Below, one piece after another: positions 30,463 to 57,899 of a stretch of 64,000 nucleotides of DNA. Both the position numbers and the translations under genes were made by a program. This DNA is from Sialis fuliginosa (lineage: Eukaryota > Arthropoda > Insecta > Megaloptera > Sialidae): the NCBI GenBank assembly GCA_961205875.1, contig OY540821.1:15438001-15502000 (forward strand), written 5' to 3'. The notes beneath the pieces are model-generated. The model had not been told where the DNA came from. It did not search any database and saw only the letters and a program-made list of their open reading frames with translations. Position 1 is the stretch's first letter; the number at the start of each line of letters is the position of its first letter.

Positions 30463-31265
30463 TTGACATAACGATGGAAACCCTTAATCCTAGATTAATT
30501 TCAGTATTATCATGGAAGTTTACATGTATGTTGTTATATTATATATTATAATATAATTATATTATCCTAACGTCCTATATATACATAGGTCGCCTATAAT
30601 ATCTATAGGGTAGTAAATCAATAAAAATAGTTATTATTCATTGCATATGTTTCATATATTTTTTGTAACGTTAACAATAATAAAAATCATTGTAATTAAC
30701 TTCTCGCATATCAGGGTTAAAAAGTGAATTCCATAATTAAAAAAAATGTATTTTCCCATTATTTAAACTAATTTATTTGTTGTCTAATTAACAAAATTTG
30801 TAATCAAACTGTCACAAAAATTATAACAAAATAATTACAATTATTTCAATTAACCTTTGGTATTTTAACCACTGTATATTTATTTATATTTTTAAATTCT
30901 CCTTGAACATTTTCAGCGGAGATATTTTCTGATGGTTGATACATTAACATACAAACATCAATCTCTAAGCATATTTGGTTGTTCTACAATCTTGAGGAAA
31001 ATCTCTCACGCGAATTTTCAGAATAAACTCACATGCCACATAAATAATATTAAAGAGTCTAATGAATTTTTTATCATTTCAAATCATTAAATAACGTTGA
31101 CAAAGTCACCGTATAAGAAAATAGGAATAAGATATTGTTTCACGCTGAGACTTTATTATGAATTTAACACTTAGGGTATCACCAAACATTTTAAAATTAG
31201 TTTAGGTATTATAAATAATTTACGTGCAAGCGAAAGCAAAAAAAAATCTTTTTACAGATTATGTC
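30463..31265. other. Intergenic AT-rich DNA, no gene seen
   Basis: No supported gene. TATA/ATATAAT-rich sequence at about 30535-30610. CGTGCAAGCGAAAGC just upstream of the ribozyme motif may belong to the same retroelement remnant. Confidence 0.5.
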
Positions 31266-31271
31266 AGTATC

Positions 31272-31323
31272 TTTAGGACTCTGATGATGATAGCATTGCT
31301 ATTGAAACACGTGTAAGTCTAAA
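31272..31323 (+). ncRNA. Type I hammerhead ribozyme motif, copy 1
   Basis: All conserved parts are in order. Stem I 5' strand TTTAGGACT (31272-31280) pairs with AGTCTAAA (31316-31323) with one bulged G. The core CTGATGA is at 31281-31287. Stem II (ATAGC with GCTAT, loop ATT) follows after an extra T. GAAA is at 31304-31307. Stem III is the loopless palindrome ACACGTGT (31307-31314). A GTA triplet (31313-31315) places predicted cleavage after A31315. Hammerheads with very short stem III, thought to act as dimers, are known from Penelope-like elements and animal retrozymes. The extra T before stem II may reduce activity. Confidence 0.7.
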
Positions 31324-31451
31324 CTCTTACAATTTTTTACTATATTGTCGATGGATTTTGATCTGTCCAGAGCAGGGTTGGAAAAACCTATGTTCTATTA
31401 AAAATATTCCATAAAATTTTCACGTAACATGTGTCGTTATAAATAAATATT

Positions 31452-31665
31452 TTGGGATGTCACCCCTCCCCCTTACATGCGATTTTGATGATTTTTAACC
31501 GTCCTCAAGCCAAACCCAATCATCCAACCAAGTTTCATTAATATCGGTTCAGTGGTTCATGAATTATGCGTGTGACAAGGATTTAAGGGACAGAAAAGTG
31601 TTTGTCTTGACCTGAAACGGAAAGATCAATTTAAAACGATCATAAAGCTTCCCGTATCTTGGATA
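31452..31665 (+). repeat. LINE/SINE-like 3' tail (family H), copy 2
   Basis: Contains CCAACCAAGTTTCATTAATA, then TCGGTTCAGTGGTTCATGAA, ACAAGGATTTAAGGGACAGA and CTGAAACGGAAAGATCAA, in the same order as H1 at 20479-20665. It lies about 130 bp downstream of the ribozyme motif, but there is no evidence that they form one element. Confidence 0.6.
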
Positions 31666-32254
31666 TTGCGAGGAGTACCTACCTATTACTAACATAAAAG
31701 AACCTAAAAAATTACAGTTTCTTCGTTTTTATTAAATTAACTGATTTTGCATCGGAACCGGTGATCTCGATATTTAGTTACCTTTGTTCTAATACCGTGT
31801 TTGGAAAAGTAAATGTAACGTATAAATTTAAAACACGCGAAATCGTCGACATTTTGCATATTTAGTGTAATTGTGTTTTCACCATTCTATGTGACAACTT
31901 AATGTGATTTATTTTAATTTGTGTTTTATTAAATTTCCACGCTGGCAGATATTTTGTTTGAGTTTTCGGTAAAATGGACGTGGATCAACTGTTTTTAATT
32001 AAATCTCAGAAATTTTAGTTCTCTAATTAAATATTTAAATCGAAACCCCTGATGTTATTTATTTTTTATACCGTTTAATTTGGATTTGTATTAAATATCT
32101 GACAAATAGCTTTGACAATTATTAAAAGTAAGTAGACTTTTAAACGTATTTCATTAGTTTTACAAATAATATTATTCGTTGACATAAAAATAAAATAAAA
32201 AGCGTGTAGTCGCGATTCATAACTGACATATTTACCAAATATCACCAGTTTGAC
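31666..32254. other. Intergenic AT-rich DNA, no gene seen
   Basis: Short CpG-containing strings (CGCGAAATCGTCGAC near 31838). No ORF, RNA or repeat recognised. Confidence 0.5.
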
Positions 32255-36135: not shown

Positions 36136-37683
36136 CAGGGATGTATTGATTTACAAAAAAAAACTGAACCGGTTTGAAATTTAATATTCGCGTAAAACAA
36201 TAAATATTGAGAACCGGTTCAGTCAATAAATTTGAACCGGTTTTACTGATATTTAAAATTTAGTTATTTTGAAATGTTTGCTTCATCATGAATTTTTCAA
36301 TTGATTTAAAAAATCGGTTCAGTTGAATAATTTTGATTTTGTATTACATTTTCACTAAATAATCTAGTTTGGGGTATTTGAAATGAACTGGTTTTAAAAT
36401 GAATACTCGTTTAAAATATTTGAAATTTAATATTCGCGTAAAACAATAAATATTGAGAACCGGTTCAATAAATAAATTTGAACCGGTTTTACAGATATAT
36501 AAAATTTAGTTATTTTGAAAAAATCGGTTCAGTTGAACAATTTTGATTTTGTATTACATTTTCACTAAATAATCTAGTTTGGGGTATTTGAAATGAACTG
36601 GTTTTAAAATGAATACCCGTTTAAAATATTTGAAATTTAATATTCGCGTAAAACAATAAATATTGAGAACCGGTTCAATAAATAAATTTGAACCGGTTTT
36701 ACAGATATTTAAAATTTAGTTATTTTGAAAAAATCGGTTCAGTTGAACAATTTTGATTTTGTATTACATTTTCACTAAATAATCTAGTTTGGGGTATTTG
36801 AAATGAACTGGTTTTAAAATGAATACTTGTTTAAATCAATCGATTAACGTTGAACCGGTTTTTGGAGATATTTCAAAAATAGTTATTTTCTTTTTCATGA
36901 ATCCTTCAACCAATATTTGATGATATTTTAAATTTATGCTAGCGTAAAACAATCAGTACAGTTCGACACTCAGACTAGGTATGACACTGGTTTTGGTCCG
37001 AAATTATAGATCTCGATTAGATCTACAAGGTAAAAGTACAAATACTAATTTTAGTGAGTGGAAAACTTTATATAATAAACAAAAATCAGAATGTCGACTG
37101 AAACACGCGCAAAAGCCAGTATGAAATATTAAAGCCATATAGCATTGGAACGATAAACTCAGTAGCTATCGTAAAATATATCACCCGCATCTCAATTATT
37201 AATTTTTCATCGAAAATTAACAAAATGGCAACGATTTTTGCAAAATAGTAACAAATGTAGGTTTTTGGGTAAAAAACAATACTTTAAATCATTTTTTTTT
37301 TAATAATTGAGGTATCGGCGATAGTCATTTATGTGCTGAATATGTCTCTAAAATTTCAGATCGATTGGAGAAATAGTTTTTGCGTCAGGTACAAAAATAT
37401 CGTTTTGAGAAAAATATTTGGGTATGATTTCTGTTGATAAATTCTGTCGAAAAAAAATAATTTAAAATGAATTTTTCTGATCCGAAGAAGTAGAATAGCC
37501 CTTTAACCCAACTGCCACAAAGGATGGAACGTAATCACGTCAATCTCTCGACTATGCATCACGTCTATTTTTTTTAAGTTTCGGTGTGGGTTTAGATTGA
37601 GATTTAGATCCTTGCTGAGAAGGATTAACTAAAAACTAAAGCAAGGTAGTTTAAAATGAACTGGTTCAATACAGCCACCCCTG
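36136..37683. mobile_element. hAT-like element carrying a tandem array
   Basis: Left end CAGGGATGTATTGA and right end, read inverted, CAGGGGTGGCTGTATTGA; both are followed inward by AACCGGTT- or AACCAGTT-type sequence. A TGTGTAAG upstream and TGTGTATG shortly after the right end could be an imperfect target duplication, but the flank is TG-rich, so this is weak. The interior holds the 210 bp tandem repeat and about 800 bp without a recognisable ORF. Confidence 0.45.
36175..36880 (+). repeat. Tandem repeat, 210 bp units rich in AACCGGTT
   Basis: Three units: 36175-36420 (246 bp, with a roughly 36 bp insertion), 36421-36630 and 36631-36840 (210 bp each, differing at only a few positions), then a diverged partial unit to about 36880. 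Each carries GAGAACCGGTTC, TTGAACCGGTTTTA, ATCGGTTCAGTTGAA and ATGAACTGGTTTTAAAATG. Exact AACCGGTT occurs at 36167, 36212, 36235, 36458, 36481, 36668, 36691 and 36853. AACCGGTT is the Grainyhead-family consensus. Near-identity of units 2 and 3 implies recent duplication. Confidence 0.9.
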
Positions 37684-40019: not shown

Positions 40020-40327
40020 TAGAAAAAAAAATTAATTAAACTAACCATATAGGTATAAATAAAAAGCTACTGATGTATATTTTGTATCATTTAAAATATT
40101 AAAATATAAAAATCCCTTAGTTCTGTGTTCTTAATGTTAAAGGAATGAAAAATTATTGTGTTAACTTACATATAGAACAAAAAAAAATTAAATTAAACTA
40201 ACCATAGGTATAAATAAAAAGCTACTGATATATATTTTGTATCACTTAAAATATTAAAATATAAAAAAACCTTAGTTATGTGTTCTTAATGTTAAAGGAA
40301 TGAAAAATTATTGTGTTAACTTACATA
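40020..40327 (+). repeat. Tandem duplication of about 155 bp
   Basis: Unit 1 (40020-40171) and unit 2 (40172-40327) share TTAAACTAACCATA, GTATAAATAAAAAGCTACTG, TGTGTTCTTAATGTTAAAGG and TGTGTTAACTTACATATAGA. The units are nearly identical apart from small indels, so the duplication is recent. Non-coding. Confidence 0.88.
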
Positions 40328-40970
40328 TAGAACATCCTGTATAAATGTCGAAGTACAATCAAACAGTTTAGTGTTCGCTCGTAACCGGAACATAAAATCT
40401 GCATGAACGGAAAAGTATGTTTTCTTATACAATAAATGATATTTTCAAAACGACGAAAAAAGTTTTCTTCCTTTTGTCCGTACCTACATGTATGTGAAAA
40501 GTATTTTCCAGTGGTGTGAACACCGAGACTCTTCGTGGAAAAATACGTGATATCTGGTAAAAACGAATTCCGCCAAATCGAATTTATCAAAATTCGGTCA
40601 ATAAAGAAAACATCCCCCTCTCTCTCTTGCGTTACGGGAGGGGCATTCGGATGGTACGTAAGCGGAATATGAATTAGGTGAAGGTGGCGTTATGAACTAG
40701 GATGTTATTTTGTTCGTATATCTTATATAAGTCGGTCAATTGGTAATCAGACTAATATTTTTCGATTTTTTGAAAGTATCCTTTTGATTATTTGATAGTC
40801 CAGAATATTTTTAATGTATTGTATTGATGCATTTTTTATTTTCGTTGAAATCTTTAGCTTACGTGATCGTGAGTCAATGCAATTGTTGGGCGTGAATTAT
40901 ATTTCAATTATAAAAATAAAACATTTTAAAATAATTATTAATTTTTAATAATTATCTAATAATCCATAAA
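40328..40970. other. Intergenic DNA with a moderately GC-richer patch
   Basis: CATCCTGTATAA at 40332 resembles a common insect transposon edge. About 40600-40700 holds CTCTCTCTTGCGTTACGGGA and GGGGCATTCGGATGGTACG, unlike its surroundings. An 89-codon minus-strand ORF (40321-40590) starts in the tandem duplicate and has no recognisable domain. Confidence 0.4.
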
Positions 40971-56817: not shown

Positions 56818-57189
56818 GTTTTGAACACATATCTAGTGAGTAGAATCGTTTCAGCAATTAATACAATAAAAGTGTGAATGTATGGACAAATTGGGGAATC
56901 TAGACAGAACTCTTATCTGTGCAAGAACAAACCTATTGTTGGAGTATCCCAGGCTCAATGCGATTTAGGGAAAACAAACCCCAGGAAATTGGAAGTACGA
57001 AATCTGTTAAATATAATACAGTTGTGTCGATAAGTCAGTAGCGTGCGGTGTTTAAAAATGCATGCACATAGTAGGAAATAGTCATTGAAATTTGAAATTG
57101 GTTAAAATAAAACAAGTTTTTAATATGATTTTGTAATTGAAATATTTTGTAGAAAATAACAAACAATAGACAAAAACTATGGTTAAGAC
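56818..57189. other. Intergenic spacer, no gene seen
   Basis: Carries the second copy of the direct repeat AATACAATAAAAGTGTGAAT, then GTATGGACA, at 56860-56887. No ORF of note (61 codons at 57035-57220 minus, no domain). Confidence 0.45.
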
Positions 57190-57440
57190 TAGAGATTGGA
57201 AAAATAGTTGCTATTTTCAATGAAATAGTTACTATAATAGTTGATAAATAGTTTTTTTTTACGATTTAATAATAATTAGTGCAAACGAAGCAGTAAAAAG
57301 TGTCGCAAATAGTTTTAAAATAGTTGATTTTAAATTGTCTTCAATCAAACCAGTTTTATGAAAACGGTGGATATATGTAATAAAAATTACAATAAATGCA
57401 TTTTTACGCAATAGTTGAAAAATTATTTTTCCAATCTCTA
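57190..57440. mobile_element. TA-flanked TIR element with AATAGTT repeats
   Basis: A 247 bp element (57192-57438) between TA dinucleotides. Termini are GAGATTGGAAAAATA and its inverse (TATTTTTCCAATCTC with small differences). The motif AATAGTT recurs many times inside (e.g. AAATAGTTGC, GAAATAGTTAC, ATAATAGTTGAT, GCAATAGTTGAA), like subterminal transposase sites. No ORF. The ribozyme-related sequence begins within 10 bp of its right edge. Confidence 0.68.
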
Positions 57441-57446
57441 TTTTGA

Positions 57447-57530
57447 AGTCCTAAAGACACTAACTTAAATCTAAATAACTACGTGTCTTTAGAACTCCGA
57501 TGATGATAGCATTGCTATTGAAACACGTAC
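57447..57530 (+). ncRNA. Degenerate hammerhead ribozyme relative, copy 2
   Basis: Shares GATGATGATAGCATTGCTAT, then TGAAACACGT, with copy 1, but the core reads CCGATGA (57497-57503): the invariant T4 is C, so cleavage is unlikely. The 3' side is deleted after CACGT, removing the cleavage triplet. Upstream, AGTCCTAAAGACAC (57447-57460) pairs with GTGTCTTTAGAACT (57483-57496) at 13 of 14 positions, closing stem I through a 22-nt loop. That is the arrangement expected of an RNA whose 5' end was made by hammerhead cleavage. Presumed inactive. Confidence 0.55.
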
Positions 57531-57899
57531 AATTTTTATGGTTAGGTGATTTGTATTTGATAAATGATTTTTTAAAATATTTAAATATGTTATGGTATGA
57601 AGTTAAACTCCTCCCATAACATTTCCAAAAAACAGGTCAGTAATGTTGAAAACAACCCACAAATATTTATAAACTTACAAACATGAATAAATAGAACAAT
57701 ACACTCCTTGTATTAAAATTACTCAACAGATATAACTTTGTGACATTAACAAACCAGAGAATTCTCTCTCTTCACGTCTCTCTCTTACACACACATACAC
57801 ATTGTTTATTTCCTACATAATTACCCTGAATCAAATCACACGAATTCGCTTCCTTACATCAAACCGTATTATAACATAGTTTATATTCAAAATAAGCAA
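57531..57899. other. Intergenic spacer, no gene seen
   Basis: AT-rich, with CTCTCTCTTCACGTCTCTCT and ACACACACATACACATT near 57765-57802. No supported ORF. Confidence 0.5.

What the first reader, a model, noticed from the sequence alone, without database searches (positions are those of the whole stretch)
31272..31323. Hammerhead self-cleaving ribozyme motif with palindromic stem III
Core CTGATGA, stem II, GAAA, an ACACGTGT stem III and a GTA cleavage triplet occur in the right order, and the outer strands TTTAGGACT and AGTCTAAA pair as stem I with one bulge. This is far more constraint than chance in AT-rich DNA would give. Short loopless stem III is the hallmark of dimer-acting hammerheads known from Penelope-like elements and metazoan retrozymes. 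One extra T before stem II is atypical.
Basis: partly seen in the sequence, partly recalled or inferred. Interest (0 to 1): 0.85.

Follow-up and report, generated by a model that had tools for sequence, protein, structure and literature searches.

The report
Hammerhead ribozyme in miniature Penelope-type element
The motif is a worn copy of a tiny jumping element that is scattered in hundreds of copies through this insect genome, carries a hammerhead ribozyme sequence, and inserts with the unusual two-armed signature of Penelope retrotransposons, which suggests what moves such ribozyme elements.

Summary
The hammerhead sequence at 31272-31323 is real. Its 35-nt core occurs 883 times genome-wide within 3 mismatches (reversed control 0). 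No Rfam hammerhead model scores it. Family A is about 139 bp: ribozyme, then a double hairpin with two alternative 3' ends, S (~103) and L (~139). By blastn, 29 of 46 A insertions read are two-armed and head-to-head; flank matches of 8 bp or more bound 18 of the 29, against 4.6% of mismatched flanks. Of 22 with both ends classed automatically, 20 pair one L with one S (P = 5e-5). By eye the same holds in 6 of 6 pairs read of a second, retrozyme-like family B (1891 copies) and 9 of 9 head-to-head insertions of full-length Penelope-like elements (PLEs). Opposite sides of 10 of 10 PLE arrays are identical over 340-390 bp. The window holds a 3'-truncated fossil of a non-autonomous PLE-type hammerhead element. 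Cleavage, RNA circles and the partner enzyme are inferred. The ribozyme kind is known; the one-L-one-S rule and the retrozyme-PLE link are the new part.

The parts
31263..31337 (+). Family A element, 3'-truncated fragment (unit positions 3-77 of 139); lacks both reverse-transcription start sites
   Evidence: 96% identity over 75 nt to the unit
31272..31280 (+). Stem I, 5' strand, with one bulged G
   Evidence: read directly; pairs with 31316-31323
31281..31287 (+). Catalytic core CTGATGA
   Evidence: descriptor hit
31288..31288 (+). One extra nucleotide (T) before stem II
   Evidence: an extra nucleotide at this place also in family B and, by eye, in three PLE families
31289..31303 (+). Stem II and 3-nt loop
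   Evidence: 6 pairs
31304..31306 (+). GAA of the core
31307..31314 (+). Palindromic loopless stem III ACACGTGT, which can pair fully only with a second copy
   Evidence: dimer fold
31315..31315 (+). Predicted cleavage-site nucleotide (H17 = A)
   Evidence: inferred from the hammerhead scheme; no cleavage test
31316..31323 (+). Stem I, 3' strand
57156..57190 (-). Inverted tail piece of a second, decayed family A insertion (unit 103-137)
   Evidence: 94% over 35 nt
57483..57568 (+). Second family A copy with a broken ribozyme: core reads CCGATGA and the cleavage-site stretch is missing
   Evidence: 78% over the unit; read

Best explanation
The window motif is a 3'-truncated copy of a roughly 139-bp non-autonomous retroelement (family A) made of a minimal dimer-type hammerhead and a recognition/start region for the enzyme of a Penelope-like element. 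Shown by sequence: the family, its two 3' ends, flank duplications, head-to-head two-armed insertions, and the rule of one L and one S end per two-armed insertion in the sample read. Inferred: a PLE enzyme complex cuts both target strands and uses each as a primer, one cDNA starting at L and the other about 36 nt away at S; the two cDNAs run towards the RNA's 5' end and are joined there, leaving one insertion bounded by a target duplication. Inferred more weakly: the ribozyme acts when two copies pair through ACACGTGT, cutting multimeric transcripts so that RNA units can be closed into circles; laps around such circles would explain the tandem arms of full-length PLEs and the 176-bp tandem of family B. 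The window copy has lost its start region and should be immobile.
For: Copy number: 883 cores, control 0; 3' part 1025, control 0; L tail 538, control 0. Orientation of neighbours within 600 bp in the first 100 listed exact copies: A 13 head-to-head, 0 tail-to-tail, 0 tandem; B 8 head-to-head, 0 tail-to-tail, 3 tandem (one array); of 120 scored PLE hits, neighbours within 8 kb: 23 head-to-head, 6 tail-to-tail, 48 tandem. Flank matches of at least 8 bp: 24 of 46 A insertions against 4.0% of mismatched pairs. L/S pairing: A 20 of 22 classed automatically plus 6 of 7 more by eye; B 6 of 6 by eye, with flank matches of 9-12 bp by eye in 5 of 6; PLEs 9 of 9 by eye. The two PLE ends are 31 bp apart. 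Left and right sides of the same PLE array identical in 10 of 10, mean 2.4 differences between arrays (7 of 90 also zero), 0 of 20000 permutations. Literature: a PLE enzyme cuts and extends both strands and starts at two adjacent sites (PMC11167929, parts 1-2 of 4 and passages); a 31-bp tail, 8-10 bp duplications and mostly head-to-head inverted repeats (PMC3846280, passages).
Against: No Rfam hammerhead hit for A; B reaches only 17.7 bits against a gathering score of 34. No autonomous PLE with A's own start region was found among twelve PLE upstream regions (best E 0.016); those with a hammerhead-like motif differ from A downstream of it. 22 of 46 A insertions show no flank match of 8 bp. A arms within a pair are not more alike than between pairs (4526 of 5000 shuffles as low), so one template for both arms is not supported for A. 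No arm end proves ribozyme cleavage: truncated arms ending near the site share CTTACA microhomology. In the anole PLE, ribozyme mutants still inserted in vitro, the ribozyme needed protein, no RNA reads ended at the cleavage site, and top and bottom strands did not differ in start site, which speaks against strand-coupled starts (PMC11167929). In PLE-1 the palindromic stem III seems to be only AATT (by eye). 6 neighbouring PLE pairs are tail-to-tail.
Confidence: 0.8

Rival explanations
1. A metazoan non-LTR retrozyme in the strict sense: tandem units whose ribozymes cut the transcript into monomers that circularise.
For: Type I core, low GC, hundreds to thousands of copies; family B has a 4-unit, 176-bp direct tandem, inside the published 150-450 bp range. 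Retrozymes in insects are mentioned in PMC7229834 (parts 1-4 of 6 read).
Against: Family A has no direct tandem among the first 100 listed exact copies nor in the 46 insertions read; two-armed insertions carry the ribozyme in opposite orientation, which cannot excise a monomer by double cleavage. The insertion signature is that of PLEs.
Confidence: 0.35
2. Self-priming on a hairpin (proposed in PMC3846280, on an antisense template) makes the head-to-head palindromes, not two-strand priming.
For: Head-to-head palindromes and identical PLE array sides fit copying of one arm from the other; B arms share variants (14 of 720 permutations as low).
Against: A hairpin copy should give both arms the same 3' end; observed one L and one S end in 20 of 22 A, 6 of 6 B and 9 of 9 PLE insertions. 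A arms can differ.
Confidence: 0.15
3. A DNA transposon (foldback or MITE) that happens to carry a hammerhead-like sequence.
For: Short, AT-rich, many copies, inverted repeats, flank duplications.
Against: 17 of 46 insertions are one-armed; outer ends differ (L/S); some arms are truncated at the inner, 5' side; flank matches vary from 8 to 17 bp among the 24 called.
Confidence: 0.03
4. Chance resemblance without ribozyme activity, kept only because the element hitch-hikes.
For: No covariance hit; an extra nucleotide in the core; activity never tested.
Against: Family B and the PLE motifs keep the same core order and pairing stems with quite different stem sequences; 0 descriptor hits in 200 resamples.
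Confidence: 0.1

Closest known systems
Minimal type I hammerheads of Penelope-like elements, active as dimers (Luense, Weinberg, Breaker 2017, RNA Biol. 14:1499; title seen in reference lists, paper not held)
   Same: Minimal hammerhead associated with PLEs, proposed to act as a dimer
   Different: Here in a 139-bp non-coding element and not in the repeat of a coding PLE; stem III is 8 nt; activity untested
Metazoan non-LTR retrozymes (PMC7229834, parts 1-4 of 6 read)
   Same: Small AT-rich unit with a type I hammerhead in many dispersed copies; family B also forms a direct tandem
   Different: Family A insertions read are single or head-to-head, with PLE-type L/S ends and flank duplications; no circRNA data
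Penelope/Poseidon elements (A. vaga, anole, D. virilis; PMC3846280 passages, PMC11167929 parts 1-2)
   Same: Optional 30-40 bp tail, short target duplications, head-to-head repeats, tandem copies; ribozyme near the start site (anole)
   Different: A is too short to encode a protein; tail use is tied to the arms (one L, one S)
Short nonautonomous Penelope elements of heliconiine butterflies (PMC6685494, two passages read)
   Same: Small PLE-class repeats in insects
   Different: No ribozyme or two-armed structure in the passages seen; the word hammerhead is absent from that main text
Aedes aegypti repeat-type hammerheads with palindromic stem/loop III (PMC3088659, passages with the Fig. S8 legend)
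   Same: Insect, repeat-type, palindromic stem III proposed to act as a dimer
   Different: 10-bp dimer stem III in the legend; element context not described in the passages seen

Membership tests
Hammerhead ribozyme, type I, minimal/dimeric | CUGANGA ... GAA(A) ... NUH in order with stems I, II, III | tested here: met
   stems I and II pair within one copy, stem III between two copies
Hammerhead ribozyme, type I, minimal/dimeric | Match to the Rfam type I model (RF00163) | tested here: not met
   A: none; B: 17.7 bits, gathering 34
Hammerhead ribozyme, type I, minimal/dimeric | At most one or two inserted nucleotides between CUGAnGA and its stems (PMC10085705, passage) | tested here: met
   One T at 31288
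Hammerhead ribozyme, type I, minimal/dimeric | Self-cleavage, as monomer or dimer | not testable with these tools
   Only a dimer fold was predicted
Penelope-like element (insertion signature) | Two alternative 3' ends 30-40 bp apart (optional tail) | tested here: met
   A S ~103 and L ~139; PLE-1 1912 and 1943
Penelope-like element (insertion signature) | Short target-site duplications | tested here: met
   Flank match of 8 bp or more in 24 of 46 against 4.0% in controls
Penelope-like element (insertion signature) | Head-to-head inverted repeats | tested here: met
Penelope-like element (insertion signature) | Own RT + GIY-YIG reading frame | tested here: not met
   The A unit is only 139 bp. 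RT matches exist elsewhere in the genome; the GIY-YIG profile matched L070 and the non-PLE L069 only
Metazoan non-LTR retrozyme | Type I hammerhead in a small AT-rich unit of 150-450 bp | tested here: inconclusive
   A unit 139 bp, just below the range; B tandem unit 176 bp
Metazoan non-LTR retrozyme | Direct tandem copies | tested here: not met
   A: none in the 100 listed; B: one array of 4 in the 100 listed
Metazoan non-LTR retrozyme | Circular RNA in vivo | not testable with these tools
   No RNA data here

The most novel reading that the evidence does not exclude
PLEs and their miniature ribozyme passengers insert by coupled two-strand target-primed reverse transcription on one RNA circle made with the help of the hammerhead. 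Two enzyme subunits start about 31-36 nt apart (L and S) on the same circle, each primed by one target strand, and run laps in the same direction. The two cDNA arms then join, giving a palindromic array with one L and one S end in a single event. This would give the PLE hammerhead a function, explain the pseudo-LTR tandems, and name PLEs as the engine that moves animal retrozymes.
Probability: 0.35. Interest if true: 0.9.

Novelty: new variant of a known kind. Interest (0 to 1): 0.72.

Why it matters
[quoted passage not shown] Here mini and retrozyme-like hammerhead families carry the same end rule as full-length PLEs of the same genome, and that rule (one long-tail and one short-tail end per two-armed insertion) constrains how the enzyme uses both target strands. 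It makes two open questions testable: what mobilises animal retrozymes, and what the PLE hammerhead is for.

Tried and rejected
Rfam at gathering and permissive thresholds: no hammerhead for A or for four PLE upstream regions; most permissive hits on the paired copies are miRNA-precursor models below their gathering scores, which I take to reflect the palindromes. Looked for insertion ends exactly at the predicted cleavage site as a trace of cleavage in vivo: none convincing; arms ending at unit 52-66 share CTTACA microhomology. Looked for the autonomous partner of A in twelve PLE upstream regions: best match E 0.016. GIY-YIG profile search: two matches, L069 (SLX1-like, a name from recall) and the PLE in L070. 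Target duplications of most PLE-1 insertions fetched cannot be measured because the targets are (TA)n runs. Arm divergence in A: inconclusive. Dimer energy gain: not unusual against shuffles. Foldback DNA transposon: rejected on end structure. Literature on the points called new: ten searches; in the titles and abstract openings listed and in the passages I read I saw neither the one-L-one-S rule nor PLE insertion ends shown on retrozymes. A. vaga PLEs are described with a tail optionally present on one of the inverted repeats (PMC3846280), so the asymmetry has a published hint. The library lacks most subscription papers.

Full report
What is there. A descriptor scan hits only this place in the window and gives 0 hits in 200 resamples. 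Rfam finds no hammerhead. A plain single-strand fold of the region does not give the hammerhead (z -1.61, 17 of 200 shuffles as good). The genome is a 392-Mb assembly in 20 contigs; 29 exon-sized matches to the insect OS-D family and TTAGG repeats mark it as an insect; the species is not known.

A family. The core within 3 mismatches occurs 421 + 462 times, reversed control 0 + 0. A downstream stretch (unit 68-102) occurs 503 + 522 times and the long tail 261 + 277 times, controls 0. A second family, B, with core CTGATGAGGACTTCTTGTGAAGTCGAAACACGTGTC, occurs 941 + 950 times, control 0. Copies of A share one unit of about 139 bp beginning just upstream of stem I. The window copy covers unit 3-77 only. 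A second, decayed pair lies at 57156-57568.

Insertion anatomy of A. I read 46 distinct insertions: 26 of the 30 loci (4 dropped as duplicates of a neighbour) and the 20. They come from the start of the listing (contigs C1 and C2) and were listed by an exact core, so at least one arm is intact by selection. By blastn 29 are two-armed and head-to-head, 17 one-armed. Flank matches of at least 8 bp: 24 of 46 against 4.0% of mismatched flank pairs; two-armed 18 of 29 against 4.6%, one-armed 6 of 17 against 3.7%. The match bounds the whole two-armed unit, which points to one event.

One long and one short end. The 3' ends of A fall mostly at about 103 (S) or 139 (L). Of 29 two-armed insertions, 22 have both ends in these classes: 20 L-S, 2 L-L, 0 S-S (binomial against independence P = 5e-5); 7 had an end outside the classes and were left out. 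Read by eye, the two L-L cases (L058, L068) look like alignment over-extension: their left arms stop at the S end and the flanks match. Seven further pairs, chosen because their 3' parts lie close, gave 6 L-S and one unclear (L134) by eye. Family B: 6 of 6 head-to-head loci read are L-S by eye, 5 of them with flank matches of 9-12 bp by eye.

Full-length PLEs in the same genome. A protein query from L070 (RVT_1 match; GIY-YIG match in the next frame) gives 120 scored hits of 489 candidates, many with open frames near 900 aa. Many lie in tandem with a period near 3.56 kb; neighbours within 8 kb are 48 tandem, 23 head-to-head and 6 tail-to-tail. In one array the two arms meet at a 3-bp overlap and both are cut short inside the frame. 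The outer sides of ten head-to-head insertions, some of them only a pair of copies, were fetched. In nine, both outer ends are visible, and all nine have one L and one S end (by eye); in the tenth (L092/L093) the right piece is not an end. The two ends are 31 bp apart. Left and right sides of the same insertion are identical over 340-390 bp in 10 of 10 comparisons, against a mean of 2.4 differences between insertions, where 7 of 90 comparisons are also zero (0 of 20000 permutations). Unit spacing is nearly constant within arrays and differs between them (37 spacings in 11 arrays, 0 of 20000; 39 in 12 with the uneven C6 array, 0 of 20000); I left out four arrays with a single spacing and the longer gaps. 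Gene conversion within arrays could also give this. A hammerhead-like motif lies upstream of the reading frame in 6 of 12 PLE upstream regions, from three PLE families, by eye with one extra nucleotide before stem II as in A and B.

A shared RNA fold. By lowest-energy folding A and B end in a double hairpin: an outer stem (A 9 pairs; B 7 pairs) around an inner hairpin, with the S end within 2-4 nt of the inner loop and the L end about 20 nt after the outer stem. Between A and B an A-U pair of the outer stem is G-C (ATGGTT/AACCAT and GTGGTT/AACCAC). Two families are too few for a covariation test, and the one PLE-1 fold made does not show this pattern.

How it works. Known from the anole PLE: the enzyme cuts and extends both target strands and starts at two adjacent internal sites that define the tail; there the two strands did not differ in start site (PMC11167929, parts 1-2 of 4 read). 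Adineta PLEs have a 31-bp tail optionally on one of the inverted repeats, duplications of 8-10 bp and mostly head-to-head inverted repeats, which the authors explained by self-priming (PMC3846280, passages). The L-S rule here argues against self-priming, where both arms would share one end, and for two primed starts. Identical PLE sides and B arms that share variants (14 of 720 permutations) suggest one template RNA for both arms; A does not support this (4526 of 5000). A ribozyme-made circle as the template would explain tandem arms, but that step is inference.

The ribozyme. Two window copies co-fold without constraint into the dimeric hammerhead (-26.3 against 2 x -8.2); the gain is not unusual against shuffles (108 of 500). 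Dimer action through an extended stem III is published for newt and viroid hammerheads (PMC6155905, passages), reported for PLE hammerheads (title of Luense 2017) and proposed for Aedes (PMC3088659, passages). Cleavage was not tested, and no insertion end proves it.

Verdict. Observation confirmed, interpretation supported. The ribozyme itself is a known kind. What raises interest is the tie between mini and retrozyme-like hammerhead families and PLE insertion, and the one-L-one-S rule. What is missing is RNA evidence and the partner PLE.

Noticed in passing
window 31390-31674: Start of another dispersed repeat, about 40 listed copies at 78-88% identity elsewhere in the genome; lies about 50 bp downstream of the A fragment.
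   Followed up: no
window 57191-57439: A foreign stretch with inverted ends (agagattgg ... ccaatctct) sits inside the decayed A pair.
   Followed up: no
window 36308-36835 and 40023-40334: Tandem repeats of 210 bp x 2.5 (98% match) and 155 bp x 2 (94% match).
   Followed up: no
genome-wide: The loose hammerhead pattern matches 12890 times on the reverse strand (control 913) but 4147 times on the forward strand (control 3218); perhaps a one-sided satellite.
   Followed up: no
C7, C9, C10, C11 and C5 contig starts: Several PLE hits lie within about 50-150 kb of a contig start; most PLE-1 insertions whose ends were fetched sit in (TA)n runs.
   Followed up: no
L124 (C1:39236100-39237000): Family B tandem of four 176-bp units has an upstream stretch absent from the six head-to-head B loci read, and only its last unit carries the usual 3' end.
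   Followed up: partly
L138 and L113: A pairs with filler or foreign DNA: between the arms in L138, inside one arm in L113.
   Followed up: no
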